A stretch of 64,000 bases of DNA from Conchocele bisecta (taxonomy: Eukaryota > Mollusca > Bivalvia > Lucinida > Thyasiridae), in assembly GCA_029237695.1 (NCBI GenBank), contig CM055267.1, forward strand, positions 7,462,036-7,526,035, written 5' to 3'. Below the pieces are notes generated by a model. It did not search any database, was not told where the DNA came from, and saw nothing but the letters and a program-made list of their open reading frames with translations. Shown here piece by piece: positions 3,600 through 57,800 of the stretch. Position 1 is the stretch's first letter; every line of letters begins with the position of its first letter. Both the position numbers and the translations under genes were made by a program.

Positions 3600-6500
3600 G
3601 TGAGCAACTAAATATTTACTTCCAGTCCCGTGTTATACGAGGCTTGTCTGTCCTTGAGCCTTTCAATATTCTGGATCTCTATCTCCATATGGGCCTCTGG
3701 CAGAGAAAGGTACATAATTGATAATTGCAGATTCTGATCATCTTGCATACTCACATAGTAGTTGTGTTACAATCCAACTGTTTTACTGAAGGCAGTATTG
3801 CTACTTTAGTGATCGAATAGCCTACAGCATAGGTCCTGATCAGACTGTGCAGATTTCCATGATGATCTGGGGCTACACTGGTTGCAAATGTTGCATACCC
3901 ACCATTTGGAAAGTATCCCCACTGTTCCAACGAGGAATCTCACTATTTAGTGAGTATCGACACTATTTCAGTGTGTATCAGTGTGTATCCGCACCATTTC
4001 GGTGTGTATCAGTGAGTATCTGCACCATTACAGTGTGTATCAGTGAGTATCTGCACCATTACAGTGTGTATCAGTGAGTATCTGCACCATTACAGTGTGT
4101 AAAAGTGAGTATCCGCACCATTACAGTGTGTATCAGTGAGTATCTGTACCATTGCAGTGTGTAAAAGTGAGTATCCGCACCATTACAGTGTGTATCAGTG
4201 AGTATCTGCACCATTACAGTGAGCTGCCCAATGCAGAGGAAGACCAAGATGAGCCGCTGTCCGTGAAGGCGAAGATTCGAGCCCTTGACAAACAGCTCAT
4301 CCTGCAGCCGTCGCCCAACCACCGACCCCCACGCAAGAAATCTCAAGAGACGAGTAGCGAAACTAGCGGCCAGGTATGTGGAGAATGGTTGAACACCGGC
4401 ATACAACTCCATGGTGCTGATGGATAGAGTTCTCATAGCACGAGCCTGTGCTTGCAGGTGTCGTTTAACCCATACTATGAATTAAATTTTGTCGTCTGCT
4501 GATTGTTTTTTTATTTTCCTTTTTTTTCTTATCAAAAACATGTTTTGACAACAATTTATAATTATTTCCATTGTGCTGTCAAACCATGATTTCATTGAGA
4601 ACGAAGGAAAAATATAGCACAACAGCAGACGACAATTTATGTTAATCTCATTCTACGGGTTAACCATTTCACCCCTATGTTTTTAATAAATATGAACATT
4701 TTTTAAAGTGTAGATCCTGATGAGATAGCAGCTGGCTCATCTGGGTCTACAATGTTTATGAACATTGATATTATGCTGTGGTCGATGTGTTAACCCTTAG
4801 CCTGCTGAATGAAATGTTGTCGTCTGCTGTTTATGTTTTATTTTTTATTTTTCTCATCAAAAACATGCTTTGACAGCACTTTAGAATCATTTCCATTGGA
4901 AATGATTCTAAAGGGCTGTCAAACCATGTTTTTATTGAGAAACAGGGCAAAATATAAAGCAACAGCAGACGACAGTTTTCGCGATCAGCAGGCTAAGGGT
5001 TAACCAGTAATATCAAGAACAACAAACCAAGTACCCAACATTCCCATACTGATTACTAATCTGACCGAATAGCACACAGATGCATGCAAAATTAATCAAG
5101 CCACAAAAATGTTGATATTAGCAAATAATTCAAGTCGAAAATAAAGATGAAACGTGAAACTATTTTCCAGCATAAACACACAAGTATTGATGGCCACTGC
5201 AGCAGTAATGTCTGCTGTTCACGATGATTAACCCTTCGAATGCGGGAAACGAAAAGTGTCGTCTGCTGTTGTTTCATACTTTATCTTTTCTGTCAATAAA
5301 ACATGGTTTGGCAGCATTTTAGAATCATTTCCATTGGAAATGATTCTAAAGTGCTGTTAAAGTATGTTTTTGATGAGTAAAATGGAACATAAAAAATAAA
5401 CAGCAGACGACAAATTTTAATTCAGCAGGGTTAATATCGCCAGTGGTAGAGCCACACTGACTGAACTGTATTGCTGATTCATTGAGGAATGAAGAATCAA
5501 GTTTCAACTGCATGTATATATGAGACACGCCATGTGATTTTGTACCTTCGGACATCTGCATAATTTCATGAAATACATATACAAAATTTACAATATTTTC
5601 ACTAAATGGCATCAAAAGTTGACAAAATTTTCAGAGTAGATGCGGAATTATGAAAATGTCAACTTTTTATGTTATTTATGAAAAATATTGTAAATTTTGT
5701 AAACGTATTTAAAGATACATTCCCACTCAGTAGGCACAAAATGTTCTTTATAGGAATTAAATAAGTAGAAATTGTGTCACCATTCCACCAGTTCTAAAAA
5801 TTGCAAGTGCCCGCCATACAGATATTAGTAATAAATATTTTACTGATAGTGACGCATGGTGGTATCAAGCTATTTTCATATGCAAATGAGGCATGCTATT
5901 TTTTAATTATTTATACTAATTAAATGCGTCACCTGAAAAAATATTTTCGATCATTGCACATCAAAATATAAATACAGATAATAAACAGTTATGTCCGTTA
6001 ACATTTTAAGGAAACCCCTGATATCAGTGTGAAAATTTACGTCTGATATAAAGTGTATAATAATGCCAATCAATACGTGGGTTAATGGTGAATGAATGTT
6101 TATTTTGCCAGAAAATGTCTCATATGATGTCTCTGATACAAAGAACATTTTGTGTCTACTGAGTGGGCATGTACCTTTAATGAAATTACGCAGATGTCCG
6201 AAGGTACAAAATAGCAGATGTCCGAAGGTACAAAATAGAAGGTACAAAATAACATAGCGTGTCTCATGTGTATGTGACTGAAGAAATGGGGCTTATGGGA
6301 TTTGTGATCAGTGATCAAATAGCACTCTCCTGTAGTCTGATAGCTATATATATATTGCTTGTTAGAAGCATGACCGTGTTTCATTAATGGAATGGCAAAC
6401 ATTGCAGATCCTGATCTGACTGTGCAGATCCATAGGCTGATCTGGATCTACATTGGTCACAAAACCCATAAGCACCATTTCTCCCGTCACATTCACATTC

Positions 6501-9500: not shown

Positions 9501-12500
9501 AAATAGATGACAACTACATTGATGAACACTGTACACTGTAGCATAGACAGCAACTACATTGATGAACACTGTACACTGTAGCAAATAGACGAGCAACTAC
9601 ATTGATGAACACTGTACACTGTAGCAAATAGACGAGCAACTACATTGATGAACACTGTACACTGTAGCAAATAGACGAGCAACTACATTGATGAACACTG
9701 TACACTGTAGCATATAGACGAGCAACTACATTGATGAACACTGTACACTGTAGCAAATAGATGAGCAACTACATTGATGAACACTAGCTGTACACTGTAG
9801 CAAATAGATGAGCAACTACATTGATGAACACTGTACACTGTAGCAAATAGACGAGCAACTACATTGATGAACACTGTACACTGTAGCAAATAGACGAGCA
9901 ACTACATTGATGAACACTGTACACTGTAGCAAATAGACGAGCAACTACATTGATAAACACTGTACACTGTAGCAAATAGACGAGCAACTACATTGATGAA
10001 CACTGTACACTGTAGCAAATAGACGAGCCACTACATTGATGAACACTGTACACAGTAGCAAATAGATGAGCCACTACATTGATGAACACTGTACACTGTA
10101 GCAAATAGACGAGCAACTACATGATGAACACTGTACACTGAGCAAATAGACGAGCAACTACATTGATGAACACTGTACACTGTAGCAAATAGACGAGCCA
10201 CTACATTGATGAACACTGTACACAGTAGCAAATAGATGAGCCACTACATTGATGAACACTGTACACTGTAGCATATAGACGAGCAACTACATTGATGAAC
10301 ACTGTACACTGTAGCAATAGACGAGCCACTACATTGATGAACACTGTACACAGTAGCAATAGACGAGCAACTGCTTGATGAACACTGTACACTGTAGCAA
10401 ATAGACGAGCCACTACATTGATGAACACTGTACACTGTAGCAAATAGACGAGCCACTACATTGATGAACACTGTACACAGTAGCAAATAGACGAGCAACT
10501 GCATTGATGAACACTGTACACTGTAGCAAATAGACGAGCCACTACATTGATGAACACTGTACACTGTAGCAAATAGACGAGCCACTACATTGATGAACAC
10601 TGTACACTGTAGCATATAGACGAGCAACTGCATTGATGAACACTGTACACTGTAGCAAATAGACGAGCAACTACATTGATGAACACTGTACACTGTAGCA
10701 AATAGACGAGCAACTACATTGATGAACACTGTACACTGTAGCAAATAGACGAGCAACTACATTGATGAACACTAGCTGTACACTGTAGCAAATAGACGAG
10801 CCACTACATTGATGAACACTGTACACTGTAGCAAATAGACGAGCAACTACATTGATGAACACTAGCTGTACACTGTAGCAAATAGACGAGCAACTACATT
10901 GATGAACACTGTACACTGTAGCAAATAGACGAGCAACTACATTGATGAACACTAGCTGTACACTGTAGCAAATAGACGAGCAACTACATTGAACACTGTA
11001 CACTGTAGCATATAGACGAGCAACTACATTGATGAACACTGTACACTGTAGCATATAGACGAGCAACTACATTGACGAACACTGTACACTGTAGCATATA
11101 GACGAGCAACTACATTGATGAACACTGTACACTGTAGCAAATAGACGAGCAACTACATTGATGAACACTGTACACTGTAGCATATAGACGAGCAACTACA
11201 TTGATGAACACTGTACACTGTAGCAAATAGACGAGCAACTACATTGATGAACACTAGCTGTACACTGTAGCAAATAGACGAGCAACTACATTGATGAACA
11301 CTGTACACTGTAGCAAATAGACGAGCAACTACATTGATGAACACTAGCTGTACACTGTAGCAAATAGACGAGCAACTACATTGATGAACACTAGCTGTAC
11401 ACTGTAGCAAATAGACGAGCAACTACATTGATGAACACTGTACACTGTAGCATATAGACGAGCAACTACATTGATGAAAACTGTACACTGTAGCATATAG
11501 ACGAGCAACTACATTGATGAACACTGTACACTGTAGCAAATAGACGCAACTACATTGATGACACTGTACACTGTAGCAAATAGACGAGCAACTACATTGA
11601 TGAGCACTGTACACTGTAGCAAATAGACGAGCAACTACATTGATGAACACTGTACACTGTAGCAAATAGACGAGCAACTACATTGATGAACACTGTACAC
11701 TGTAGCAAATAGACGAGCAACTACATTGATGAACACTGTACACTGTAGCAAATAGACGAGCAACTACATTGATGAACACTGTACACTGTAGCATATAGAC
11801 GAGCAACTACATTGATGAACACTAGCTGTACACTGTAGCAAATAGATGAGCACTACATTGATGAACAACTGTACACTGTAGCATATAGACTACAACTACA
11901 TGATGAACACTGTACACTGTACATATAGACGAGCAACTACATTGATGAACACTAGCTGTACACTGTAGCAAATAGACGAGCAACTACATTGATGAACACT
12001 GTACACTGTAGCATATAGACGAGCAACTACATTGATGAACACTAGCTGTACACTGTAGCAAATAGACGAGCAACTACATTGATGAACACTAGCTGTACAC
12101 TGTAGCAAATAGATGAGCAACTACATTGATGAACACTAGCTGTACACTGTAGCAAATAGACGAGCAACTACATTGATGAACACTGTACAGTGTAGCAAAT
12201 AGACGACAACTACATTGATGAAACACTGCTGTACAAATTGTAAACAAATAGATGAAGCACCTACAAATTGAAGAACACAGTAACACTGGCAAATAAAGAA
12301 AGCAACTACATTGATGAACACTGTACACTGTAGCATATGCAGCCTATGCTCAATAAATGTAAATGCAATAATTGTTTACAAGCAAACATTGTTAACCCTT
12401 AGACCACTACTCACAACAATTGTCGTCTGCTGTTGCTTTTATATCTTGCCTTATTTCTCAATAAAAACATGGTTTGACAGCACTTCAGAATCATTTCCAA

Positions 12501-33800: not shown

Positions 33801-36800
33801 CGTGGTGGGAGTTTACTGGGATATAACTTTTGGACAGAAACTTGCTACGGGCCAATCAAATGTTAGGGAATTGTGTAAATATGTTTGTGCTGGAATTATC
33901 ATACTATGACATGGCAACATTGACATGAGCACTGCAATGAAAAGTGGAAGTGAATGGGTTTAACGTCCCAGCTACGGCTAAAGTAATTTAGGGACAGGCG
34001 AGGTTTGAAGCCACTTCTAGTTTGGAAGTCAGGTGTAAAACCCCTAGGCCACAACCCATCCCACACCGCAATGACGTGGCTGCTATTACACAACAACATA
34101 CATTATCAAATGAATAATAAACAACATTATGATTGATTGGTATATAGATTAATTGATTGTGGTTTTAAGTGAATTCAACAGCATGGTCATATACAGATGA
34201 AAATACACTTGTTCACGGGCAGCACCATACAATAACATGCAAATACAAGTACATGTCATAAGAAATTGATAAGCAGGGGAGATAATTTGGCTTCACATAA
34301 TTTGACATTTTTGCTCTTCATAAGTTAAAGGAAAAATTCTGAAATTTATTTTTTGTTGTGAAATGGTGTAAATACGATACCAAATTTAGAAAGAAGTTCC
34401 CATTATAGAAGCAGCCAGCATAATTAATTACATACCATTTACTTAACCAGGTCAACTGATTACCGTGAAAAAAGATGTTTGTTTTGTTTGTTGGATTCAT
34501 GGTCAGATGCGTATAGCCTCCCCATCCCCCAGACACAGAGGTGAATTCTGAACAAACTAGAGCAAGTGAGCAGGAGCTCACGGATACCCCCAGCCACCGC
34601 CTGGTCTCACCATCAAATATTTCTAAATCATTCTGCCTTGAGAGCTGCATGGATGATGATAAAGAAGTATATGAAGTTTCAAATCAATCCGACTTATGGT
34701 TGCAGAGATAATGGGTACCAGAAAACTTACGGACTGACGGACGGAAATACGAAAACTATATATGCCGTGACATACTTTGTATGCAGTGTGTATAATAAAG
34801 AACATGCGGACTGCGAACAATGACGGCCTTACCCAGCATCTGTGACCAGCCTATCCGGATGGCCGCGTTTTCTGGCATCTCATTGACGATCACCTCGTAA
34901 TACCACGAGCCCCGCTTTACACCTGAAACGGGAACCAGTGTATTGGGAACATCAAAATGGCCGACATCTACTACAATATCTGTGTCTGCGCCTTACAGCC
35001 TTTGTGACCAGTGTAGACCCAGATCAGACTGCACATATGTGCAGTCTGATCCGGGTCTGCACTGTTCACTATTCTGCGAGTGAAACACCCGTCATGATTC
35101 AACCAACATTATAGATCTTATGTGTGCAGTTGGATCTGCGTCTGCACTGTTCAACATTCTGCGAGTGAAACAACAATTATGCTTCCAGAAAACATTATAT
35201 TATACAGACGTGTGCTAGATGACCTTGGGGCCGTTTCACTAATCTTTGTACGACTAAAATGTTCGTAAGTGCAAAAGTATGATAGTCTGTAAATTTCACA
35301 TTAACACTGTTTTCTTGTAAACAATTATTGGATTTACATTTATTGAGCATAGGCTGCATATGTAGTATGCTCAATAAATGTAAATCCATCAATTGAAATT
35401 TCCAGACGATCCTAAATTTGAACTTACGAACATTTTAGTCGTGTGAAGCTTTAATAGTGAAACGGGCCCCAGGATCTAGATGGCCATGTATGCCCTAAAT
35501 GATATTCCACTGGTCATAGTCACATATGTAGCCAGCAAATATTAGTGAGTAGTCACTACTTTCATGAGATGATCAGGGTCACACATCGATGGTCTAGTAA
35601 CATAAGGTCGTAACTGCTATGCTAAAGCATAGCAGTTACGACCTTATGTTACTAGACCATAGACATGTGTTTCAAGTTTGAGAATATATGAAACTATACT
35701 GCCAGAATATAAATTCTGTACAACAGTTTGTCAGAAAATATTCTGATGCTCATAGACCTAATATTATTGTGCTGACTCACACCATGTTCAAACAATGGGA
35801 ACATACTAAAATTGAATTAGAGATTGCTGACTTTCTATCGTCTCCGTATTGTTTCAGTAAATATAAGGATATATTTTGACAGGTGGATGACTCGGATCTA
35901 GGACAAGTCTTCCACCTGTGAGCTGTGACTGTTGTAACCATTGAGGATGGTGTACGTACCATGTGAGGCGCGAATCATGCAGTAACCCTTCTCCCCTGTG
36001 ACGGAGAGCCGGTCCTCAGACAACTTCAGCTGCGGAGCTGTAAACAACAAAGGCTATGCAGTCACTGTGCACACAATACACCAGTCTTATGCAGGTGATC
36101 GACCTCGGAAAATCACATCATTTTGTTTAGTTTAACCCTTTCAACACCACCTGTATAGTGGAATTGGCAAACAGTCTGAAAATAATTTTGTGACGGTTGG
36201 ATTGGTTGCAAAATTAACATATCAAAATCCATTCCAGTTAGTTAGGCGTGAACGGGTTAAACAAAACAGTCACATGATGTCAAACAGATAAACTCATCGA
36301 ACCAAACCAGCATGTGTATGTAATCGATTTGTTCAGGGTCTCTGTCTGCCAATTGGTCAGTGGAACCCCAGTTACGCCTCAAACAAACAATACAGATTAT
36401 AATCAGACATACATGGTCAGAAATTAAAATAAGTGAAAGTGAATGGGTTTAACATCCCAGCAACAGCTAAGGTCATATAGAGACGGGACCACAGATTAAA
36501 GTTTCATCCGACAGACCAGTGGGATGGAAATACTATGAAAGTATTTTTGATGCTTAAGGCGAGGTTTGAACCCACAACCTCCGGATTGGAAGTCAGGTGT
36601 CCTAACCCCTATGCCACAACCGATCCCACAGCACGGTATACTAGGCACTCATATCAATAATTTCAGAACATCCCTAAGATATTTGACAATAACATACCTC
36701 GGTCATGCATGGCGAGCAGTACCTCGGACCCCAGAAATATGCGGTACAGGTAGGCGGGGATGGGTTTGCCGGCCCACTCCACACTCTCGTCGTACTCGCG

Positions 36801-39800
36801 GCGGTTCGGGGCGTGGGGATCGGGCTCCGCGAGGATGTAGCGGTACCCGTCCTTGTTGTACGGGTGCTCCAGTGGGTAGCCGTGGGGCGCCAGCTTCGCC
36901 AGGTTCAACAACTCACTGCACAGACAGACCAGCATGAAATAGGTACCAAACTTGGACAATCCTGAGTAACTTCCCTTTAATAGAACATCTACCGAGGCAT
37001 CATCGGATCTAGAGTTGGGGGTGTTTGTTGGTTTGGAAGTTCTTGTTCACGGGAACTTACTCATTATCTTTAAAGTTTAAAGTCACCTGGTGCCCGTTTC
37101 ACTAAACTTTGTATGACTAAAATGTTTGTAAGTGCAAATTTAGGATCGTCATCAATTGATGGATTTACATTTATTAGATTTACATTCATTGAGCATAGGC
37201 TGCTTGCAGCCTATGTTCAATGAATGTAAATCCAATAATTGTTTACAAGAAAACATTGTTAATGTGAAATTTACAGACTATCATAATTCTGCACTTACGA
37301 ACAGCTTAGTCGTACAAAATTTAGTGAAACGGCCCCCTGTTTATAAGAATGGCCTATAGGAAACATGCAACCACCATTATACCATACAGGTGAAGATTAA
37401 TAGGTGGTTCTCAAACAAGAGCAACTGAGCAGACACTCACAGATACCCCCAGCCGCCGCATGGACCAATGAACAAAAACTTTAACGCAAATCTTACGGAC
37501 AGACGAACGGACAGACGGAATAACAAAAACTATATATCCCTTGACATACTTCATATGCCAGGAGTATAATCAATTAACATTATGCGATTAAATTTTACTG
37601 ATATGTATTTAATGTTTGTTATTTTCCAGTGTATAATTCCAAGTCCAAAAAGGGAGATAATCCATGACCTGGGTGTCGAATCAACAATCAAAATAAACTT
37701 TGTGCATCTACTCATCATAAGAAAGCTATATACCAAATTTCAGGTCTGTAGCTATTACGGTTTAAAAGTTTTACGAGCTACAGGGCAAAATTGCCAAATT
37801 TTAAGTCGAAAAGGGGGAGATAATCCATGACCCAGGGTCGAATCAAAAGTCGAAATAAACATTGCGCATCTACTCATCATAAGGAAGCTACATACCAATC
37901 ACAAGGCAAAATTGCCAAATTCTAAGTCGAAAAGGGGAAAATAATACATGACCGGGGGTAGAATAAAAAATTGAAATAAACTTTGCGCATCTACTCATCA
38001 TAAGGAAGCTACATACCAAGTTTCAGGTCTGTAGCTATTACGGTTTAAAAGTTTTACGAATCACAAGGTTGGTGACGGACGGAAGAACGGGACTGACGGA
38101 TGGGACAGACGGACAAGGGTAACATTAAATACCCCCTCCACTATCATGGTGGGGCATAAAATGGCTGCCAATGGGAGACGAGTCATCTGATATGATAAAT
38201 GGTGTGATAAATATGTATACCCGAATTTGGTTACGATCCATCAAGTAAAACTTGAGTTATTGCGTGGACGAGGATACAGAGGGCGAAAATTACAAATAGG
38301 CTTCTTCGTCTTGCCGTGATAAACATGTATAAAATTTGGTTACGATTGTTCAAGTAGAACTCATAGTTATTGCATGGATAAGCTGTACCCGCCCACCGGT
38401 GAAAGGTGAATACATAATATGTCTCTGTTTCTCTGTGCAATTTCACCACAAACAACAGCCACTCACCCCTTCTTGGTCTTCACATGTGTAGGCTGCACAA
38501 CTTCCTGTGTCGTCTTCCTTTTCTGGCCACGTAATCCCTCTGAAACCATTAAGAAATGGTTATACAGCAAGAGTTGTCAGGGGATAATGAAGTGTGCCAG
38601 GTGGTGCAAGAAGAAACCTCAGTGCATGAGTATGATATATGTATATATGTGAAAGGCAAAGTTGTAAAAGTTGGCAGACATCTTCAGCATTTAATTTCTC
38701 TATACATTGATCATGAGACTTGATTTGCTAACGAGAAGTGGACTTACTGTCGACGACCTGGCCAGGCTTCGTGGTCGCCTGGATCTGGGTGTTACCCTTC
38801 GTGAGGATCTCAAACGCTGGCGTCACCTTGTACAGGTCCTGGGGAGATACTCATGGTTTAAACACAGATTGTCTCACACAGACACAGTACAGGTATCACC
38901 TTGTACAGGAAGTTATTTTACCGTGTCATGGTATTTATTTCACATTTGCATGTATATCTTGTAAATTTGAAAGCTTCATTTTGTTATATTGAATGTTGAG
39001 CAACAATTTGAGAAAAGTTGGCTTCCATGGGAAAATGATTTCCCTGTTCTATTATTGTTGGCAATTTACTAGTTCTACATCAAAGATTATTTGTGTAAAG
39101 GTATAAACTATACAGTTTACTCAATTTTGACCTACATGCAACAGGTTTTGGTATGCTCTTTGATTGCTCACATTTTTTTTAATGGGTCAAATTGTGGCCG
39201 TAGATAACATATCGGTGGCAAATTATTGTAGCTAAGGTCCTGGGGTGATAAACTCTTGGTTTAAACACATACTGTCTCACACAGACATAGTACAGGTGTC
39301 ACCTTGTACATGTCCTGGGGAGATAAACTCATGGTTTAAACACAGACAGTCTCACACAGACACAGTACAGGTGTCACCTTGTACAGGTCCTGGGGAGATA
39401 AACTTATGGTTTAAACACATACCGTCTCATACAGAAATAGTACAGGTGTCACCTTGTATAGGTCCTGGGGAGATAAACTCATGACTTAAACACACACTGT
39501 CTCACACAGACATAGTACAGGTGTCACCTTGTATGGGTCCTGGGGAGATAAACTCATGGCTTAAACACACACTGTCTCACACAGACATAGTACAGGTGTC
39601 ACTGTGCACAGGTCCTGGGAAGATAAACTCATGGTTTAAAAACAGACTGTCTCACACAGATATAGTACAGGTGTCACCTTGTACAGGTCCTGGGGAGATA
39701 AACTCGTGGTTTAAACACATACTGTCGCACAGAGATATAGTACAGGTGTCACCTTGTATAGATCCTGGGGAGATAAACTCGTGGTTTAAACACATACTGT

Positions 39801-42800
39801 CGCACATAGATATAGTACAGGTGTCACCTTGTATAAGTCCTGGGGAGATAAACTTGTGGTTTAAACACATACTGTCGCACATAGATATAGTACAGGTGTC
39901 ACCTTGTACAGGTCCTGGGGAGATAAACTCGTAGTTTAAACACATACTGTCTCATACAGAAATAGTACAGGTGTCACCTTGTATAGATCCTGGGGAGATA
40001 AACTCATGGTTTAAACACATACTGTCGCACATAGATATAGTACAGGTGTCACCATGTATAGGTCCTGGGGAGATAAACTCATGGTTTAAACACATACTGT
40101 CGCACATAGACATAGTACAGGTGTCACCGTGTACAGGTCCTGGGGAGATAAACTCACGGTTGAAACACAGACTGGCTCATACAGACACAGTATAGGTGTC
40201 ACCTTGTACATGTCCTGGGGAGATAAACTCATGGTTTAAACACATATTGTCTCACACAGACATGGTACAGGCGTCACCTAGTACAGGTCCTGGGGAGATA
40301 AACTTGTGGTTTAAACACATACTATCTCACACAGATATAGTACAGGTGTCACCTTGTACAGGTCCTCTGGAGATAAACTCATGGTTTAAACAAAGGCTGT
40401 CTCACATAGACATAGTACAGGCGTTCACTTTGTACAGGTCCTGGGAGATAAACTCATGTTTTAAACACCATACTGTCGCAACATAGATTAGGAACAGTAC
40501 AGGTGTCACCTTGTACAGGTCCCTGGGGGAGATAAAACTCTGTGGATTACAACCTACCGTCTCATACCAGAAATAGTACAGGAGGTGTCACCTTGTATAG
40601 GAGTCCTGTGGAAAGATAAACTCATGGCTTAGGCTTAAAACACCACACTGTCTCACACACAGACCATAGTACAGGTGTCCACTGTGCAACAGGTCCAGGG
40701 GAGATAACTCAATGGGTTTAAACACAGACTGTCTCACAAAGAATAAAATAGTACAGGTTCACCTTGGTTTTAACAGGTCCCTGGGAGATAAAACTCATGT
40801 ATAAACACATACTGTCCGCACAAACAGACACAGAACAGGTGTCTCCTTGTACAAGGTCCTGGGGAGATAAACCTCGGTGGATACATACCGTTCTCATACA
40901 GAAAAGATACAGGTGTCCACCTTGTATAAGGTCCTGGGGAGATAAAACTCATGGCTTTAAACACCACACTGTCTCAAACAACAGACATAGTACCATGGTG
41001 TCCCGTGCACAGGTCCAGGGGAGTAATAAACCTCATTGTTTTAAACACAGGACTGTCTCACCAAAGATTATAGTACAAGGTGTCACTCGTTGTACAGGTC
41101 CCTGGGAGGGATAAACTCGTGGTTAAACACATAAAAACTGACGCACATTAGGATTATAGTAAAAGGTGTCACCTTGAATAGAATCTGGGGAAGAAAAAAA
41201 TAAACTGTGGTATAAACACATACTGTCGGCGACAAGCAAAATATAGTACAGGTGTCACCTTGTATAAGGTCCTGGGGAGATAAAACTTGTGGTTTAAACA
41301 CATGGCTTGGTCGCAACATAGATAAGTACAGGTGTCACCTAGTACAGGTCCTGGGGGAGATAAACTCGAGTTTAAACACATACGTCCTCAATACAGGAAA
41401 TAGTACCAGGTTGACCTTGTATACAGGATCCTGGGGAGATAAACTCATGGTTTAAACACATACTGTTCTCACCAAATAGATTTATAGTACAGGGTGTCAC
41501 CTTGTACAGGTTCCTGGGAATAAACCTCATGGTTTTACCAACACATCCTGGGGTCGCACATAGATAAATAGTACAGGTGGTTTTTTTCAAAAACCATGTA
41601 TAGGTTCCTGGGAGATGAAACTCATGGTTTAAAAACACATACTGTCGCATAAAGACCTAGTACAACGGTGTCACCGTTGTACAGGTTCCTGGGGAGATTA
41701 AACTCCACGGGGTTGAAACACAGACTGGCCTCAAACAGACACAGTTATGGAAGGTGGTTTCAAAAACCTTGTACATGTCCTGGGGGCGATAACCTCAAAT
41801 GGTTTTAAAACAACAATATTGTCTCCCACAGACAAGGTACACGGTGTTCAACCTTAGTATAAGGTCCTAGGGGAGATAAACTTGTGGTTTTAAAACACAT
41901 ACTGTCTCCACCAGATATATACAGGTGTCACCTTGTAACAGGTCCTTTGGAGATAAACACCATGTACATGTACCTGGGGGTCAGCACATAAACGACATCG
42001 GGTTAAACAGAGTTTCACCGTGTACAGGTCCAGGGAGATAAACTCACGGTTTGAAACACAGCCTGGCTCAAACCAGACACAGAATAGGAATGTACCGACC
42101 TTGGTACCATGTCCAGGGGAGAATAAACACCTTGGTTGGTTTAAACACATACTGTCTCAACACTAGATATAGGTACATGGTGATCACCAATTACCGGTAC
42201 CTTGGGAGGATAAACCTTGTGGTTTAAAGAAAAACATCACTGTTCCAAAACAAACAGATAAAGTACAGGTGTCACCTTGTACATGTCCTGTGGAATAAAC
42301 TCATGGTTTAAACAAACTGTCACCCAAAGACATAGGTACAGGCGTTCCCACCTTAGTACAGGTCCTGGGAGAATAAACTCATGGTTTAAACACATACTGT
42401 ATCGCACAGACATAGTACAGGTGTCATTATGTATAGGTCCTGGGGAGATAAACTCATGGTTTAAACACATACTGTCGCACATAGACATAGTACAGGTGTC
42501 ACCGTGTACAGGTCCTGGGGAGATAAACTCATGGTTGAAACACAGACTGGCTCATACAGACACAGTATAGGTGTCACCTTGCATATGTCATGGGGAGATA
42601 AACTCATGGTTTAAACACGTACTGTATCATACAGAAATAGTACAGGTGTCACCTTGTATAGATCCTGGGGAGATAATCTCATGGTTTAAACACGTACTGT
42701 CGCACATAGACATAGTACAGGTGTCACCTTGTACATGTCCTCTGGAGATAAACTCATGGTTTAAACAAAGACTGTCTCACATAGACATAGTACAGGTGTC

Positions 42801-45800
42801 ACCTTGTACAGGTCCTGGGGAGATAAACTCATGGTTTAAACACAGACTGTCTGACACAGATATAGTACAGGTGTCACCTTGTACAGGTCCTGGGGAGATA
42901 AACTCGTGGTTTAAACACATACTGTCGCACATAGATATAGTACAGGTGTCACCTTGTATAGATCCTGGGGAGATAAACTTGTGGTTTAAACACATACTGT
43001 CGCACATAGATATAGTACAGGTGTCACCTTGTATAGGTCCTGGGGAGATAAACTTGTGGTTTAAACACATACTGTCGCACATAGATATAGTACAGGTGTC
43101 ACCTTGTACAGGTCCTGGGGAGATAAACTCGTGGTTTAAACACATACTGTCGCACATAGACATTGTACAGGTGTCACCTTGTACAGGTCCTGGGGAGATA
43201 AACTCATGGTTTAAACACATACTGTCGCACATAGATATAGTACAGGTGTCACCTTGTACAGATCCTGTGGAGATAAACTCATGGTTTAAACACATACTGT
43301 CGCACATAGACATAGTACAGGTGTCACCGTGTACAGGTCCTGGGGAGATAAACTCACGGTTGAAACACAGACTGGCTCATACAGATACAGTATAGGTGTC
43401 ACCTTGTACATGTCCTGGGGAGATAAACTCATGGTTTAAACACATATTGTCTCACACAAACATGGTACAGGTGTCACCTAGTGCAGGTCCTGGGGAGATA
43501 AACTTGTGGTTTAAACACATACTGTCTCACACAGATATAGTACAGGTGTCACCTTGTACAGGTCCTGGGGAGATAAACTCATGGTTTAAACATAGACTGT
43601 CTCACACAGACATAGTACAGGTGTCACCTTGTACAGGTCCTGGGGAGATAATACATGGTTAAAACTCAGACTGTCTCACATAGATATAGTACAGGTGTCA
43701 CCTTGTATAGGTTCTGGGGGATATAAAACTGATGGTTTACACACATACGTCGCACATAGACATAGTACAGATGTCACCGTGTACAGGTCCTGGGGAGATA
43801 AACTTCATGGTTTAAACACATACTGTCTCACACAGACTAGTACAGGTGTCACCGGTGTATTGGTCTGGGGAGATAAAACTCATGGTTTAAACACATACTG
43901 TCTCACACAGATATAGTACAGGTGTCACCGTGTACAGGTCCTGCGCAGATAAACTCATGGTTTAAACACATACTGTCTCACACAGACATAGTACAGGTGT
44001 CACCGTGTATAGGTCCTGGGGAGATAAACTCATGGCTTAAACACATACTGTTTCACATAGACATAGTACAGGTGTCACCGTGTATAGGTCCTGGGGAGAT
44101 AAACTCATGGCTTAAACACATACTGTTTTTCCCCCCACACAGACATAGTACAGGTGTCACCGTGTATAGGTCCTGGGGAGATAAACTCATGGTTTAAACA
44201 CAGACTGGCTCATACAGACACAGCATAGGTGTCACCTTGCATATGTCATGGGGAGATAAAATCATGTTTAAAACACATAAACTTGTCGACATAGGACTTT
44301 TAAAGTAACAGGTAGTCAACCATTTGTACAGGTCAGGGGAGATAAATCATGGTTGAAACACAGGGACTGGCTCATAAGGGACCAGTTATAGGTGTCACCT
44401 TGGCATATGTCGTGGGGAGTAAATCCATGGTTTACCACGTTACTGTCGAACATAGATATAGTTACAGGTGTCATATGTATTGGTACGGGAGATAAACTTG
44501 GTTTAAATACCACATACTGTCGCACATAGACATTAGTACAGGTGTCACCGTGTAACGGTCCTGGGAGATAATATCTTGGTTTAATCATATTGTCTACAAC
44601 AGACCATTTTACAGGTGTCACCTAGTACACGTTTGGGGAGATATAAACTAGTGGTTTAAAAACATTACTGTCTCACAGATATAGTACCAGGTTGTCACTT
44701 GTACGGTCCTGTGGGAGAATAATTCGAATGGTGTTAAACAACGACTGTATCCATAGACTTAGTTCAGGTGTGAACTGTAAGGTCCTGGGGAGATAAACTC
44801 ACTGGTTTAAAGACACAGACTCCACCATAAAACACATACTGTTTCACACAGACATAGTACAGGTGTCCAGTGGTATAGGTCCTGGGGAGGGTAATACTTC
44901 ATGGTTTAAACACAGACTGGCTCATAGAGACACAGCATAGATAAACTCATGGTTTAAACACATATTGTCTCACACAGACATGGTACAGGTGTCACCTAGT
45001 ACAGTTCCTGGGGAGATAAACTTGTGGTTTAAACACATACTGTCTCACACAGATATAGTACAGATGTCACCTTGTACAGGTCCTGTGGAGATAAACTCAT
45101 GGTTTAAACAAAGACTGTCACACATAGACATAGTACAGGCGTCACCTTGTACAGGTCCTTCGGAGATAAACTCATGGTTTAAACACATACTGTCGCACAT
45201 AGATATAGTACAGGTGTCACCTTGTACAGGTCTTGCAGAGATAAACTCATGGTTTAAACACAGACTGTATCACAGACATAGTACAGGTGTCACCATGTAT
45301 AGGTCCTGGGGAGATAAACTCATGGTTTAAACACATACTGGCTCATACAGACACAGTATAGGTGTCACCTTGCATATGTCGTGGGGAGATAAACTCATGG
45401 TTTAAACACGTACTGTATCATACAGAAATAGTACAGGTGTCACCTTGTATAGATCCTGGGGAGATAATCTCATGGTTTAAACACATACTGTCGCACATAG
45501 ACATAGTACAGGTGTCACCTTGTACAGGTCCTGTGGAGATAAACTCATGGTTTAAACAAAGACTGTCTCACATAAGACATAGTACAGGTGTCACCTTGTA
45601 CAGGTCCTCGGGAGATAAACTCATGGTTTAAACACAGACAGTCTGACACAGATATAGTACAGGTGTCACCTTGTACAGGTCCTGGGGAGATAAACTCGTG
45701 GTTTAAACACATACTGTCGCACATAGATATAGTACAGGTGTCACCTTGTATAGATCCTGGGGAGATAAACTTGTGGTTTAAACACATACTGTCGCACATA

Positions 45801-48800
45801 GATATAGTACAGGTGTCACCTTGTATAGGTCCTGGGGAGATAAACTTGTGGCTTAAACACATACTGTCGCACATAGATATAGTACAGGTGTCACCTTGTA
45901 CAGGTCCTGGGGAGATAAACTCGTGGTTTAAACACATACTGTCGCACACAGATATAGTACAGGTATCACCTTGTACAGGTCCTGGGGAGATAAACTCATG
46001 GTTTAAACATAGACTGTCTCACACAGACATAGTACAGGTGTCATCTTGTACAGGTCCTGGGGAGATAAACTCATGGTTTAAACACATATTGTCTCACACA
46101 GACATGGTACAGGTGTCACCTTGTACAGGTCCTGAGGAGATAAACTCATGGTTTAAACACATACTGTCGCACATAGACATAGTGCAGGTGTCACCTTGTA
46201 CAAGTCCTGGAGAGATAAACTCATGGTTTAAACACAGACTGTCTCACATAGATATAGTACAGGTGTCACCTTGTATAGGTCCTGGGGAGATAAACTGATG
46301 GTTTACACACATACTGTCGCACATAGACATAGTACAGATGTCACCGTGTACAGGTCCTGGGGAGATAAACTCATGGTTTAAACACATACTGTCTCACACA
46401 GACATAGTACAGGTGTCACCGTGTATAGGTCCTGGGGAGATAAACTCATGGCTTAAACACATACTGTTTCACACAGACATAGTACAGGTGTGACCGTGTA
46501 TAGGTCCTGGGGAGATAAACTCATGGTTTAAACACATACTGTCTCACACAGACATAGTACAGGTGGTCCTGGGGAGATAAAAGCTCTGACATGGTTTAAA
46601 CACATATTGTCTCACAGACAAGGTTTACCGATGGTATGAACAGACACCATCTTGCACAGAAATAGTAGCAACACTACAGATATTAACCCAATAACTGATG
46701 GTAAAAACACTTTAAATAAATACTGTCCTTGGTTGAATATTGGGATACGAAAAGCCACTGTGTATTTGCTCAACAACTATACTTACAGAGTTAAGTAGCC
46801 CAAACTGTGTGCCCGCAGCCGCTGTCTCATTCCCAAAGAATATGTCCGTCTCTTTCGCCTACAATGGGCAACATATCATTCATACTATGGCTAAAATCAT
46901 TTTGTCGGCTCTCAATAGAAATATACAGGCAAGATGACTTATTTAGAAACATTTCACTGAATTTAAAATTTATCTTTCAACATTTGTGGTTATGATAAAA
47001 ACACACGAACATGTTTGATGGATATACATGTACGATATTAAAACAACATTTTCAGATTGGGAAGAAAAATTAAATTTTGTTAAAAACATATTTCGCAGAA
47101 CAATTGTAGACTATACTTCAGTTTTGATATAAATGTGTATTAGATATTTAACATGCACATTTGAATTAACTTTTCAAAGTATTCATTACCATCTGTGTAT
47201 ACAGTAGCGTAACCATTTGTCGGGATTACCCCGCGTCGGGAATTTTCGTAAACCACATTTGTCACTAATCACGGAAACTTTCACGGTCAATTTCCCGGAC
47301 ATTTTTTACAGAAGACACCTATCTGTCAAATGGAGAAAAATATTCCACATCGCCCTTGGTCATGTAAGGTTTTAATCAAACTTGTTAGAATACCTTCAAA
47401 ATGTTGTATTTCAGCTATTCCCACTTTTGTCCACTCATAAACATCATTATTTAAAAAGATTTACAAAGCATGGTTCTGTCAGTCTGCGTCACTGGATTAT
47501 TTAGCCATTTTGAGCAGTCAATGTCATGTAAACACAGACTGGTAGCTGTCAAATTACCAGAATAGAGCTTCTATTATACTGGGGGGTCTTATATGAAAAA
47601 CAATAACAAACTAACACAGAATTATATTTGATTACACAGATGTAGATATAAACTCTGTGTTTATAATATAATTTATTGTTCTGTTGATTATAAAAATGCT
47701 CAGAATAATATGCTACAGTTTGTAGATTGTTATTATCTTGTTGTTGGTATAAATTCTGCCTGTAGTGTCTGTGTGCACCATAATGAATATGGTAAAATAG
47801 CATGAACCACAAATGAAAATTAAACATGATCTGAAAGCATCTTGCATTATGAGTATTAGCCTTGTGATAATATTATTGTCATTTATGACTGGCAAAGGAA
47901 ATGGTGGAAAATTGTTTACTGTACACTCCTCTGATAATTTACATAACAATTTTTTACTCTGATCTGATGGTGCGCCACACTACAGGATGAGAATAACCCA
48001 ACAACAACAATCCAGAGTCTAAGGTCACAGTCTATTTTCTACAAGCGCCTGGATGATACGTTAACAAAATGGACGACATGGAAACAAGCAGGACTTTTAG
48101 ATAAATCTGGTTTCACAGCACTTTTACGATAAGTTTATTGTTTTAAAAAGTTTTGAATAATTGTTTTTGTATGCTTATAGCTCTAGTAACTGGCCAACGA
48201 AGGCTTATTATCCAGAACCTAGGCATATCCACTGTACTGGTTTAATCGGGTACACATGCTTTTGCTTTATTGATAAACATATGGAGAATCCTTGAAGCAC
48301 TGTAATGTGATTATAGGAATGAATGGCCTTTTTGTGGAATTTATCGGGGTATAATCTTGGAAAAGTCGCGGGAATACTGGACGAAGCGATAAAAAATTAT
48401 AATTTTCGAACAAAAATAATTTGTTTTTTTTTTCTTCTTTTTTTCTCTCCAAAATTGTAATTTTTTTAAGGCCTCGTCCAGTATTCCCGCGACTTTTCCA
48501 CGTTTATATCCCCGATAAATTCCACAAAAAGGCCAGTCATTCCTTATAATTCCAGCATTTGAAATAAATTCATCAAGAAAATGTGTTTATTTTCCGTTTT
48601 CTTAAGAATTATTTTAACTGCGCCTCACGGTTTACTGGGATATAAATGTCAGGGAATTGTGTAAATATTGTGGACAGAGACGCTACGGACCAATCAAATG
48701 TCAGGGAATTGTGTAAATATTGTGGACAGAGACGCTACGGACCAATCAAATGTCAGGGAATTGTGTAAATGTGGACAGAGTCAGGTAATTGTAAATATTT

Positions 48801-51800: not shown

Positions 51801-54800
51801 GGGAATTGTGTAAATATTTTGGACAGAGACTTGCTACGGGCATCAAATGTTAGGGAATTGTGTAAATATTTTGGACAGAGACGCTACGGGCCAATCAAAT
51901 GTTAGGGAATTGTGTAAATATTTTGGACAGAGACTTGCTACGGGCATCAAATGTTAGGGAATTGTGTAAATATTTTGGACAGAGACTTGCTACGGGCATC
52001 AAATGTTAGGGAATTGTGTAAATATTTTGGACAGAGACTTGCTACGGGCATCAAATGTCAGGGAATTGTGTAAATATTGTGGACAGAGACTTGCTACGGA
52101 CCAATCAAATGTTAGGGAATTGTGTAAATATTTTGGACAGAGACTTGCTACGGGCATCAAATGTTAGGGAATTGTGTAAATACTTGGACAGAGACTTGCT
52201 AACGACCAATCAAATGTAGGATTTGTGTAAATAATTGGGGACTAGAGCTTGCTACGGGGGCCAATCAATGTTAGGGAAATTGTGTAAATATTTTGGACAG
52301 AGACTTGCTACGGGCCAATCAAATGTTAGGGAATTGTGTAAATATTTTGGACAGAGACGCTACGGGCCAATCAAATGTTAGGGAATTGTGTAAATATTTT
52401 GGACAGAGACTTGCTACGGGCCAATCAAATGTTAGGGAATTGTGTAAATATTTTGGACAGAGACGCTACGGGCCATCAAATTTTAGGGAACTAGTGGTAA
52501 AATTATGACAGTAGACTTGCTACGGGCACAAATGTTAGGGAAGGAATTGTGTAAATATTTTGGTTACAGAGACTTGCTAACGACCATGTAGGGAATTGTG
52601 TAAAAATTTTTTGGACAGAGACTGCTTACGGGCAATCAAAGTTAGGGAAAGAAAATAAATTGGACAGAGACTTGCTACGGTGCATCCATGCTAGCATGTT
52701 AGGGGAAATTGGTGTAAAAATATTTTGGACAGAGACTGCTGGGCACGCATCAAATGTAGGGAATTGTGTAAATATTTTGGACAGAGACGCTACGGGCCAA
52801 TCAAATGTTAGGGAATTTGTGTATATGACGAGACTGCTAACGGGCATCAAATGTTAGGGAATTGAAATGATAGGACTTGGCCTACAAGTAAGTTTGTGTA
52901 AATAAATTTGGACAGAGACTTGCTACGGGCAATCAAATGTAGGGAATTTGTGTATATGGATGTAGACATCAAATGTTAGGGAATTGTGTAAATATTTTGG
53001 ACAGAGACTTGCACGGGCAATCATGTTAGGGAATTGTGTAAATATTTTGGACAGCTTCACGGCTCAAAGGGTTAAAAGTTAAATTAAATGGGATGTACGG
53101 CGCATCAAATGTTAGGGTCTGTGATAAATGGACAGACATGTTAGGAATTGTGTAAATATTTTGGACAGAGACTCTACGCATCAAATTTAGGGAATTGTGT
53201 AAAGGGCAGGACTTGCTACGGCCAATAAAAATGTTAGGGAATTGTGTAAATATTTTGATGGACGACTTACGAAGTACTCTACGCTCAAACGTCTAGATTT
53301 GTGTAAAATGGACATTATGACGTTACGGGCCAATCAAATGTTAGGGAATTGTGTAAATATTTTGGACAGAGACTTGCTACGGGCCAATCAAATGTTAGGG
53401 AATTGTGTAAATATTTTGGACAGAGACTTGCTACGGGCCAATCAAATGTTAAAGAAATGGTGGGTAAATATTTGACAGAGACTTGCTACGGGCCAATCAA
53501 ATGTTAGGGAATTGTGTAAATATTGTTGTGCTGCAATTATTTATCTATGAATCACAGAAAATATGTACAATGTAGCAATATTTCTATATCAATTTGCTTT
53601 TTACATTTACATTTGGAAATATCAATAGGTAGATCATAGAGAATATACCTGAATATTCTGGTTCTATTTACAACTAACTCCAGGGCTCCACATATGATGT
53701 CTATCAATCTATTTCATGCATTTATTTTAGATTTTCAAAAGTGACAGAACAAAATATTATACAACCATTTGAAATTACTAAGTTTGAACAAGAACTGGCA
53801 TCGTTACACGAAGCTAATCCCCTCGCTGGAAGCCATGATAATAATACTAATAATAAAAAAAAACACAAGTCCTCAGTGACCTTGACCTTGGGCGGTCGAA
53901 CGTGGGTCGTATGCAAAACAAAGCAGCATCCATAGACACACATTGTGGCCAAATATTATCAATATCGATGAAGCGGTTTATGAGTTATTGAACGAGATGG
54001 TTGTGGCCCGCATGTCGCGCCAATGTGCGTACATACGCCAATGTGCTGACTATATTGCACTGTCCGCAAGTGGGTGCGACAAAAATGAAAAGTGTTACTA
54101 TAAACATACGTACACACGTACGTACATGGACTAACGCTATATCCCCTCCTGCCTATCGGCGAGGGGATAATAACAGGCACTCGAATAGACCTACAATTAA
54201 ATGGGCAGTGGAAAAAGGGGACTAACTCCATAATTCAATTACAATGTGCGACACGAGCATCCAGAGACGTGACTTACAAGCGTCTTATGACACGAGCATC
54301 GAGAGACGTGACTTACAAGTGTCTTATGACACGAGCATCCAGAGACGTGACTTACAAGTGTCTTATGACACGAGCATCGAGAGACGTGACTTACAAGTGT
54401 CTTATGACACGAGCATCGAGAGACGTGACTTAAAAGTGTCTTATGACACGAGCATCGAGAGACGTGACTTACAAGTGTCTTATGACACGAGCATCGAGAG
54501 ACGTGACTTACAAGCGTCTTATGACACGAGCATCCAGACGTGACTTGCAAGCGTCTTATGACACGAGCATCCAGAGACGTGACTTGCAAGCGTCTTATGA
54601 CACGAGCATCGAGAGACGTGACTTACAAGTGTCTTATGACACGAGCATCGAGAGACGTGACTTACAAGTGTCTTATGACACGAGCATCCAGAGACGTGAC
54701 TTACAAGTGTCTTATGACACGAGCATGCAGACGTGACTTACAAGTGTCTTATGACACGAGCATCGAGAGACGTGACTTACAAGTGTCTTATGACACGAGC

Positions 54801-57800
54801 ATCCAGAGACGTGACTTACAAGTGTCTTATGACACGAGCATCCAGAGACGTAAGTGTCTTATGACACGAGCATCCAGAGACGTGACTTACAAGTGTCTTA
54901 TGACACGAGCATCGAGAGACGTGACTTACAAGTGTCTTATGACACGAGCATCCAGAGACGTGACTTACAAGCGTCTTATGACACGAGCATCCAGAGACGC
55001 GACTTACAAGCGTCTTATGACACGAGCATCCAGAGACGTGACTTACAAGCGTCTTATGACACGAGCATCCAGAGACGTGACTTACAAGCGTCTTATGACA
55101 CGAGCATCCAGAGACGTGACTTACAAGCGTCTTATGACACGAGCATCGAGAGACATGACTTACAAGCGTCTTATGACACGAGCATCGAGAGACGTGACTT
55201 ACAAGTGTCTGATGACACGAGCATCGAGAGACGTGACTTACAAGCGTCTTATGACACGAGCATCCAGAGACGTGACTTAGAAGCGTCTTATGACACGAGC
55301 ATCCAGAGACGTGACTTAGAAGCGTCTTATGACACGAGCATCCAGAAGCGTCTTATGACACGAGCATCCAGAGACGTGACTTACAAGTGTCTTATGACAC
55401 GAGCATCCAGAGACGTGACTTACAAGCGTCTTATGACACGAGCATCCAGAGACGTGACTTACAAGCGTCTTATGACACGAGCATCCAGAGACGTGACTTA
55501 CAAGCGTCTTATGACACGAGCATCCAGAGACGTGACTTACAAGCGTCTTATGACACGAGCATCCAGAGACGTGACTTAGAAGTGTCTTATAACACGAGCA
55601 TCCAGAGACGTGACTTACAAGTGTCTTATGACACGAGCATCCAGACGTGACTTACAAGTGTCTTATGGATGGTGGTGTGCCATGTGAGCTTTGTTCTCCG
55701 TGGCATTGTTGTCAGGTTCTCCCACTGCGTGTCGACAAACGGAATGATCTCCTGCAACAGTCAATATATAGATCCGTGAAAGATGTACACCTGTGTTTGC
55801 CACGTACATTTATTGAATATGTATCTGGTTAGAGCAATCGGAGAGTGGAGATATTAGGTACTTAAAAACTTTAACACATATTTTAAAGACTAATTTTACC
55901 TTGACCTTGAGAATGGGGGCCACATGGGTGGGCTATAGAATGTTAATATGGATGATGATAAAGAGGTATGTGAAGTTTCTAGTCAATTGGGCTTAGAGTT
56001 GTGGAGATATTGGGTACTGGTTGTGTGTGAATCCCAGAATGGATGAATTCAGTATTGACAAACGAGTACCCTCCCATCCAAGACTTTGCTTGATGCAAAT
56101 ACTTCCCAATCAACAGTGAATAGAGCAGGCGCAAATGTACAGTGATCTTGGGAATACACGGGTCACAAACTATAAGCCAGGTCACAAACTATAAGCCAGG
56201 TCACAACTATAAGCCAATCTTTACACCATATGACGTCACTCAGTATGGAAAGTGTGCAGAGACCAGGGGCCCGTTTCACTAAACTGCTTACGACTAAAAT
56301 GTGTAAGTGCAGATTTAGGATAGTCTGTAAATTTCAATTGATGGATTTACATTTATTGAGCATAGGCTGCATATGCAGCCTATGCTCAATACATGTAAAT
56401 CCAATACTTGTTTACAAGAACACAATGTTATTGCGAAATTTACAGACTATCATAATTTTGCTCTTACGAACATTTTAGTCGTACGAAGTTTTAAATAATG
56501 AAACGGCCCCCAGAATCATAACTCATAAAGTGACCAAGTGTTTGTAATGTCTTCTGCATTTGAAAGTTATGATACCAACATACCACAGTAGTTTGGAGTT
56601 CCTTCATACTTGCGCATAGATGTGGCTACCCACAGCAAGCGAAAATTGTGCCAATCGTTTGGAGTTGGCATAATTACAGAATGATGAACTGAATAACTAT
56701 CATGGAAATCCATGTGAAATAACGGTCCACAAATAACTTTACAATATCATAAATTTGATAAGGCACTTGATGGCATACATCAACCACCATAACAGGCTTC
56801 ATAGTATATTGACAGTTACAATGCTGATTTAATTTTAATTAATTTTATTTTTGTTGTCTGTTGCTTATTTTCCATTTCCCAATTTGTTTCATCAAACACA
56901 TGCACTATACTTTAGAATCATTTCCAATGGAAATGATTCTAAAGTGCTGGCAAACGTGTTTTTATTCAGATATAAAACACCAGCAGACGACAATATTAGT
57001 TTGCACCATTCTAAGGGTTAAATAAATACAGTGGAGGTCCCCAGGGTGTCTGGTTTAGAGAGGTTCCACTGTAAAACAGACAGATGAATACTTCAAGACA
57101 TGAGTGGCTACTTAGTGATCACAAACAGACATTATTATTGGAGGGAAATGGCATTGCAACATTTTCACTCGTCCTTACTTCGACAGAGATGGCAAAAATA
57201 AGAAATTTACATAAAAAACTCAGAACTTCTACTCGTCCTGCATGCATTCCCACTCGTCAGGACGAGCGGACGAGTGGAATTTTCATGCCCTGTGTAACAT
57301 ATCTAAATTAAGCTCAACTAACTTTCCTCTGTGTTTGGTTTAGAGGGGTTCTACTGTAGAAGGTACTGACCTTGTCCTTGGAGAACATGACCCTGCTCTC
57401 ACCGTGGACGTTGGACAGGAAGGTCAAGTTGGCCAAGGTCGTGTAGCAGATCTGCTGGAAACCTGCAACACGGCCGGCAATGGTGACACACCGGGAACAA
57501 GTCAACATCATTGTAGAAGTACGGAAAGCTTACCAAGAATAGACCAGCACCTGATAAGTTTGCGTCTTAATATTTCCAGATTTCAAATTCAATGCGTATT
57601 TTACGTTTACAAATGTATTATTAATTTTCTTCCATATTATATTAGGAAACAAATGATAAAAAAATAAAAAAAAATAAAAATTCACTTATTTGAGCTGCAA
57701 AAAGCAAACACTGTTTGCTTTTTGCAGCTCAACTAAGTAAATTTTCAACTTTATTACAGTATTTCCGCTACTCAATTTGAAAACCAATGCGCATTTTCAA

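What the first reader, a model, noticed from the sequence alone, without database searches (positions are those of the whole stretch)
38748..46640. ASH2L 3' splice site and exon start amplified into a ~98-copy 75-bp array
On the ASH2L sense strand every clean unit reads tatctccccag|gacctgtac and on through aaggtgac. That is the acceptor and the first 16-20 nt of the real exon at 38748-38838. The exon part is ancestral, since it aligns with conserved ASH2L (FGLLxxDLxxxxP), so the array grew from the gene and not the reverse. The spliceosome would meet about 98 equivalent acceptors before the true one. A decoy used in the exon frame reads DLYKVTP, then ten further codons, and hits TAA at codon 18. 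Decoy use would therefore be a poison event unless suppressed. This could act as a splicing-rate or dosage control on a chromatin regulator, or be a tolerated accident.
Basis: partly seen in the sequence, partly recalled or inferred. Interest (0 to 1): 0.88.

Follow-up and report, generated by a model that had tools for sequence, protein, structure and literature searches.

The report
Splice site multiplied inside clam gene
In a bivalve's gene for a chromatin protein (ASH2L), a stretch holding one splice site and the first few letters of its exon is repeated almost a hundred times inside the neighbouring intron; smaller duplications of this kind are known from lancelets, and whether it changes the gene's output is not known.

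Summary
Observation confirmed. On the minus strand, ASH2L exon 7 (38838-38748) starts at the AG that ends the last unit of a 75-bp tandem array: 96 units (46616-39235, the first and last incomplete) plus the flush unit 38839-38908. A dispersed ~323-bp repeat splits the last unit from the rest. Units carry the acceptor and ~17 nt of exon 7. That exon part is ancestral (identical in Mya and Dreissena), and a 150-bp query of the unit matched only this locus in the 1.89-Gb assembly, so the array grew from the gene. The gene reads through 16 exons, 527 residues.

It is not alone. Exon 5's donor is likewise repeated (39 bp, 37 units, flush). Exon 13's acceptor ends a 31-bp array whose other units lack the AG. 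A probable opposite-strand gene has an acceptor array at 3941-4221. [quoted passage not shown]

Best reading: a very large mirage-type minisatellite, grown by unequal exchange and tolerated because only the terminal unit has a whole exon behind it. A cost or dosage effect is possible, untested. Copy number is uncertain where the sequence is indel-rich (31 of 96 units).

The parts
38748..38838 (-). ASH2L exon 7 (91 nt; [30 protein letters not shown]+1 nt), preceded by the true acceptor tatctccccag
   Evidence: residues conserved in relatives
38839..38908 (-). terminal array unit flush with exon 7; holds the functional acceptor; lacks 2 nt (tt) of the interior units; its upstream end again carries ctgtacaaggtga
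   Evidence: acceptor score 5.77
38909..39234 (.). dispersed high-copy repeat (~323 bp) inserted in the array between the terminal unit and the rest
   Evidence: 2657 first-look candidates, 40 scored, all 40 match (one is itself; the other 39 at 89-92% identity, from query 3-5 to 324-326)
39235..46616 (-). 75-bp array, 96 units (first and last incomplete); units carry the exon-7 acceptor plus about 17 nt of exon 7; spans most of intron 6 (46786-38839)
   Evidence: found only at this locus
40422..42269 (.). indel-rich block of the array (units 58-79), probably unpolished assembly; unit count here uncertain
44230..44932 (.). indel-rich block of the array (units 23-31)
46787..46858 (-). ASH2L exon 6 (72 nt, [24 protein letters not shown]), donor tct|gtaagt; exon upstream of the array intron
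55656..55751 (-). ASH2L exon 5, ending ...TIHKTL|gtaagt; its end and donor are the first unit of the donor array
54250..55667 (-). 39-bp array, 37 units including the real one, repeating exon-5 end plus 5' splice site (cataagacactt|gtaagt); 29 of 37 read GTAAGT
   Evidence: found only at this locus, (16 of 16 matches)
3941..4221 (+). 31-bp array (about 9 copies) ending flush at the acceptor caccattacag of a probable opposite-strand exon (4220-4373); 7 further acceptor-like copies (1.65 to 4.53 bits, real one 3.94)
   Evidence: exon by open frame and splice signals only, no homologue found

Best explanation
A boundary-spanning minisatellite ('mirage' type). A local duplication once caught the intron 6/exon 7 junction; unequal exchange and block duplication then expanded the copies into the intron. 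Only the terminal unit stayed attached to the exon and was kept as the working acceptor. The other ~96 are intronic copies that are normally removed with the intron. Inferred, not shown: the true site wins because it alone is followed by a whole 91-nt exon with a donor, while each decoy has ~17 nt of exon; the inserted repeat further isolates it. A moderate cost in splicing speed is plausible, since decoys that bind U2AF/U2 can hinder splicing. Shown: the array, its descent from the exon, its restriction to this locus (within a capped search), an open gene, parallel arrays at other junctions of the same gene. Inferred: duplication mechanism, tolerance, absence of function.
For: Exon part ancestral: [14 protein letters not shown] identical in P0001, Mya and Dreissena, one change in P0002; none of the 34 relatives aligned (of 120 listed) has an insertion at either junction. 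Unit found only here: 50 of 50 listed matches within C3:7500857-7508651, 4 of 4 candidates scored. Gene complete and open: 16 exons, 527 residues and a stop (exons 1 and 15 rest on weak matches). Array turnover: units 9-17 and 46-54 are 2.1% apart, mean over all unit pairs 12.7%. Same thing at exon 5's donor, 34 other matches. Exon-derived letters no more conserved than intron-derived ones (8.3% against 6.6% divergence in 54 units; 7.1% against 6.7% in the 53 complete ones), as expected without selection on the decoys. RNA folding does not hide the decoys (0.52 against 0.47 unpaired). Repeat inserted between array and exon. Precedent with normal splicing: lancelet mirages (PMC3087553; PMC3902484). 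[quoted passage not shown]
Against: Decoys keep the AG (52 of 54 indel-free units) and score above the true site, so 'silent' decoys need an explanation. AG and the inner GT are both intact in 49 of 54 indel-free units and 74 of 96 overall, making 87-nt pseudo-exons that could be recognised. Two arrays of 5 or more copies spanning junctions is somewhat more than random placement predicts (15 arrays, 0.25 expected, P(2 or more)=0.026), and exon 13's flush array would be a third; this is post hoc. No RNA data were available.
Confidence: 0.72

Rival explanations
1. The array is a working decoy-exon or poison-exon bank. U2AF/U2 and U1 assemble on many units, delaying intron 6 or giving nonsense transcripts, so array length sets ASH2L output.
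For: Decoy acceptors median 10.3 bits; 1 of 1959 minus-strand AGs outside the five big arrays reaches that. Unit donor AAGGTGACA 6.65 bits, within the range of the real donors of exons 2-12 (5.27-10.85); 44 of 2635 GTs outside arrays score as high. AG and GT both intact in 49 of 54 indel-free units; 42 of 42 adjacent-unit pseudo-exons tested are 87 nt, 38 stop at codon 18, 2 at codon 4, 2 open. Decoy exons in long introns are reported to promote intron retention (PMC12017769, passages). Concurrent 3' site occupancy inhibits splicing (PMC5389562, passages).
Against: No RNA. No sign of selection on the decoy letters. Lancelet mirages with AG/GT signals are reported not to disturb splicing. Weights are human and recalled.
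Confidence: 0.15
2. Decoys are used productively: some mRNAs take up 12-nt microexons (GACCTGTACAAG, in frame, adding DLYK) or longer open pseudo-exons.
For: The 12-nt interval is in frame with phase-0 flanks and closed by AAG|GTGACA (frame by reading).
Against: None of the 34 aligned relatives has such an insertion, but none is known to carry the array; most 87-nt versions stop.
Confidence: 0.05
3. The copy number, or much of the array, is an assembly artefact.
For: 31 of 96 units are indel-rich in two blocks with sharp edges; by eye similar noise in the 48.6-53.5 kb array.
Against: Three mostly clean stretches of 75-bp units remain (11 of their 65 units carry any indel), next to clean flanks; the donor array is clean. 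A long array is not in doubt, only its length.
Confidence: 0.06
4. The unit is a dispersed satellite or transposon-borne repeat that landed here and gave the gene its exon start.
For: The gene is 34% tandem repeat and a dispersed repeat sits in the array.
Against: Unit and donor unit matched only at this locus; exon start conserved in relatives.
Confidence: 0.02

Closest known systems
'Mirages' of lancelet genes (Adh3, globins BflGb6 and BflGb9, troponin C, PGBD5; PMC3087553, PMC3902484, passages seen)
   Same: Tandem repeats spanning an intron-exon boundary; both 5' and 3' boundaries hit; many units keep AG/GT signals; authentic copy at the edge; turnover of units.
   Different: Bivalve instead of lancelet; 97 and 37 units instead of 3 or 6 (BflGb6; copy numbers of Adh3 not seen); array fills most of an 8-kb intron; two large arrays in adjacent introns of one gene; decoys outscore the true acceptor; dispersed repeat inserted. 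Splicing not tested here.
[quoted passage not shown] cited in PMC4526556, passage seen; original not held)
   Same: Repeat units that each carry a 5' splice site next to an exon, like the exon-5 array here.
   Different: There two downstream repeat donors are used in mRNA; here use is unknown, and the main array is of acceptors.
Internal tandem repeats at exon-intron boundaries in human segmental duplications (PMC2812944, passages seen)
   Same: Minisatellite expansion at exon-intron boundaries.
   Different: On average about 4 copies of 30 bp; linked there to novel introns and alternative transcripts.
Decoy exons in retained introns such as OGT (PMC12017769, passages seen)
   Same: Splice-site pairs inside a long intron, with a premature stop if included.
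   Different: Decoy with tested effect there; about 96 tandem copies and no test here.

Membership tests
Mirage (boundary-spanning intronic minisatellite) | tandem units that span an exon-intron junction, with exon and intron letters | tested here: met
Mirage (boundary-spanning intronic minisatellite) | real exon and junction intact and terminal in the array | tested here: met
   (open frame of 527 residues)
Mirage (boundary-spanning intronic minisatellite) | many units keep AG/GT signals | tested here: met
   AG 80 of 96; GTAAGT 29 of 37
Mirage (boundary-spanning intronic minisatellite) | homogenisation inside, boundary unit left out | tested here: inconclusive
   block duplications and 2-nt differences of both terminal units fit; no allele comparison
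Mirage (boundary-spanning intronic minisatellite) | length instability between or within individuals | not testable with these tools
   one assembly only
Mirage (boundary-spanning intronic minisatellite) | normal mRNA splicing | not testable with these tools
   no RNA
IFI6-type minisatellite with used alternative donors | repeat donors used in mRNA | not testable with these tools
   no RNA
Decoy exon / poison exon | paired 3' and 5' splice sites in a long intron | tested here: met
   AG and GT both intact in 49 of 54 indel-free units, 74 of 96 overall; intron about 7.95 kb
Decoy exon / poison exon | causes intron retention or nonsense transcripts | not testable with these tools
   no RNA
Dispersed satellite or transposon-borne array | copies at other loci | tested here: not met

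The most novel reading that the evidence does not exclude
Boundary-spanning minisatellites arise repeatedly in this bivalve genome, and the ASH2L acceptor array is a length-variable decoy bank: the number of strong decoy 3' splice sites sets how fast or how completely intron 6 is removed, and so tunes a core subunit of the SET1/ASH2 histone methyltransferase complex between individuals or tissues.
Probability: 0.1. Interest if true: 0.82.

Novelty: new member of a known kind. Interest (0 to 1): 0.5.

Why it matters
It is a natural experiment on how splicing picks one acceptor among nearly a hundred copies that look as good or better. It would test exon definition, first-come choice and U2AF/U2 sequestration inside an open gene that is probably essential (my inference). 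In the library searched I saw mirages of this kind only in lancelet papers. One search lists 9 papers with at least two of 'mirages', 'amphioxus', 'minisatellite'; 6 hold 'mirages': two in this sense, three only in reference titles in another sense, one on pine and spruce not opened. In one search, 86 papers hold at least three of the five terms 'mirages', 'exon-intron', 'mollus', 'oyster', 'minisatellite'; the 10 listed hold no 'mirages'. A bivalve case with a much larger array would suggest the process is not special to lancelets and would give a source of new introns and exons.

Tried and rejected
Rejected: dispersed-repeat origin (searches find the units only here). RNA structure hiding the decoys (no clear difference; local folding in 150-nt windows only). 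Special constraint on the AG (37 of 75 sites have at most one variant in 54 units, so AG does not stand out). Junctions as hotspots: 3 of 30 junctions have another copy against 1025 of 3000 random 28-mers in the gene (the random set also falls inside arrays, which inflates it), so junctions are not enriched per position. Per array birth, 45 merged arrays predict 1.0 junction hit (P(3 or more)=0.08; 0.84 and 0.05 under a stricter count), and 15 arrays of 5 or more copies predict 0.25 (P(2 or more)=0.026). This is post hoc, because the window was chosen for one of them.

Led nowhere: the probable opposite-strand gene (3260-17019) gave no Pfam, PDB or protein match (candidates are limited by length), so its exons rest on open frames and AG/GT only. 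A genome-wide pattern search for arrays of CAGGTAAGT did not complete, so how common such arrays are in this genome is unknown; my background is one region of 204 kb. Papers whose passages I saw but that decided nothing: PMC4039745, PMC3443670 (intron gain by tandem duplication), PMC12480690, PMC6905558 (an abalone intron minisatellite, junction not discussed in the passages).

In one search exon 1 (28 bits, P0001 only) and exon 15 (27 and 32 bits) are weak matches, and the edges of exons 1 and 15/16 were set by splice signals and frame. Unit counts in the two noisy blocks depend on the alignment. The 74 boundary-type AGs were picked by a simple filter out of 400 AGs in the array.
Full report
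What is there. The minus strand of the window carries most of an ASH2L gene. With 140 kb of flanking sequence a whole gene can be read: 16 exons from window coordinate 66413 to -41659, one open frame of 527 residues and a stop (exons 1 and 15 rest on weak matches), with the ASH2L winged-helix, PHD and SPRY families of Pfam. The closest proteins are two unnamed sequences (79% each), Mya arenaria (78%) and Dreissena polymorpha (76%), and the tree puts the window with these four (100/100). The host is therefore a bivalve near Myida (classification recalled); its name is hidden. The assembly has 1.89 Gb in 1196 contigs.

The acceptor array. Exon 7 is 38838-38748; intron 6 runs from exon 6's donor (tct|gtaagt, exon end 46787) to exon 7's acceptor. 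TRF finds 75 bp x 94.9 copies; a wrap-around alignment finds 96 units from 46616 to 39235, the first and last incomplete. A further unit is flush with exon 7 (38839-38908). Between them lies a 326-bp stretch whose positions 4-326 match a dispersed repeat (2657 first-look candidates; all 40 scored match, one being itself, the others at 89-92%). The array sequence stops and resumes in phase around it, so it was inserted into an array that once reached the exon. Consensus of a unit in gene direction...gagtttatctccccag|gacctgtacaaggtgacacc...; the true exon reads ...gagtatctccccag|gacctgtacaaggtgacgcc.... AG is intact in 52 of 54 indel-free units, in 80 of 96 overall and in 21 of the 31 noisy ones.

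Origin. The exon part is old: [14 protein letters not shown] is identical in P0001, Mya and Dreissena, with one change in P0002, and none of the 34 relatives aligned (of 120 listed) has an insertion at the exon 6/7 or 5/6 joint. The unit was found nowhere else: 50 of 50 listed matches of a 150-bp query fall in this locus, 4 of 4 candidates scored (the tool warns that counts are lower bounds and that very common words are skipped). So the array grew from the gene. It shows recent block turnover: units 9-17 and 46-54 differ by 2.1%, against 12.7% over all unit pairs.

Quality. Units 23-31 and 58-79 hold 281 of 306 inserted bases and begin and end sharply; of the other 65 units 11 carry any indel. 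This is most easily read as unpolished long-read sequence, so the true unit number may differ.

Not a single case. I compared 30 splice junctions of the gene with 204 kb. 27 match only themselves. Exon 7's acceptor has 54 other matches at up to 6 mismatches in 28. Exon 5's donor has 34: the 39-bp array 55667-54250 begins inside exon 5 and repeats cataagacactt|gtaagt in 37 units including the real one, 29 with GTAAGT; it too matched only here (16 of 16). Exon 13's donor has one degraded second copy, 99 bp downstream, without GT. TRF shows a further array, 31 bp, ending flush at exon 13's acceptor; its last unit alone has GCAG, while the 12 before it found by a pattern read GCAT (11) or GCAA (1). 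On the plus strand a probable gene has a 31-bp array ending flush at an acceptor (4220) with 7 acceptor-like copies before it, 1.65 to 4.53 bits against 3.94 for the real one. That gene is supported only by open frames and splice signals; homology searches failed.

Are junctions special? 34% of the gene is tandem repeat. Random 28-mers in the gene have another local copy in 1025 of 3000 cases, so junctions (3 of 30) are not enriched by position. By array birth, 15 arrays of 5 or more copies would cover 0.25 junctions by chance, against 2 seen by the 28-mer scan (P=0.026), with exon 13's flush array as a possible third; the window was chosen for one of them. The fair reading is that arrays are born all over this gene and those at junctions survive because the copies fall into the intron.

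How the cell may cope. By recalled human weights the decoys are strong: median 10.3 bits, the true acceptor 5.77, real acceptors of exons 2-12 2.4 to 9.8, and 1 of 1959 AGs outside the big arrays reaches the decoy median. The unit also has AAG|GTGACA, 6.65 bits, above one real donor of exons 2-12 (exon 6, 5.27) and close to those of exons 3, 5 and 7 (6.9 to 7.1). AG and GT are both intact in 49 of 54 indel-free units (74 of 96 overall), and 42 of 42 adjacent-unit pseudo-exons tested are 87 nt; 38 stop at codon 18, 2 at codon 4, 2 are open. Folding gives no shield. What the decoys lack is the exon: 17 of 91 nt. In published minigenes with duplicated 3' splice sites, both can bind U2AF and U2, concurrent occupancy inhibits splicing, and upstream copies with 14, 55 or 205 nt of exon were not used; splicing was very inefficient and only distal, although an earlier report had the proximal exon's length affect the choice (PMC5389562, passages). 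That predicts correct but perhaps slower splicing here. This step is inference.

What it is like. [quoted passage not shown] PMC3902484, one passage). The human IFI6 minisatellite gives donors that are used (PMC4526556, passage; the 1995 original is not held). Boundary repeats in human duplicated genes are described in PMC2812944 (passages). I file the finding as a mirage-type array, new for a bivalve as far as searches show, and far larger than the examples I saw described. Length instability and splicing remain untested. Whether the decoys tune ASH2L is open.

Noticed in passing
54250-55667 (minus): 39-bp array of 37 units repeating exon 5's end and 5' splice site, flush with exon 5; 29 units keep GTAAGT; matched only at this locus.
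   Followed up: yes
window coordinates -36693 to -37084 (L025, own genome C3:7424951-7425342): 31-bp array ending flush at ASH2L exon 13's acceptor; none of the 12 preceding units found has the AG that the last one has. Just downstream, a 99-bp duplication of exon 13's end whose second copy lost GT.
   Followed up: partly
3260-4380 and 15871-17019 (plus): Probable opposite-strand gene inside ASH2L's 64.7-kb intron 12: a membrane-protein-like exon, an exon at 4220-4373 preceded by a 31-bp array of acceptor-like units, and a long exon with a 30-bp (10-codon) coding repeat at 16006-16159. No homologue found.
   Followed up: partly
40422-42269, 44230-44932, and by eye much of 48.8-53.3 kb: Indel-rich stretches with sharp edges inside tandem arrays, which suggests unpolished assembly in repeats.
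   Followed up: partly
ASH2L gene, 108 kb: 34% of the gene span is tandem repeat (37061 of 108072 bases, 45 merged arrays), among them 43 bp x 84 at 8672-12335 and 52 bp at 48644-53524.
   Followed up: partly
about 33820-33880: A piece whose translation ([12 protein letters not shown]) also occurs in the 52/54-bp array of 48.6-53.5 kb lies beside the 28-33.5 kb array, so that unit may be dispersed, unlike the junction arrays.
   Followed up: no
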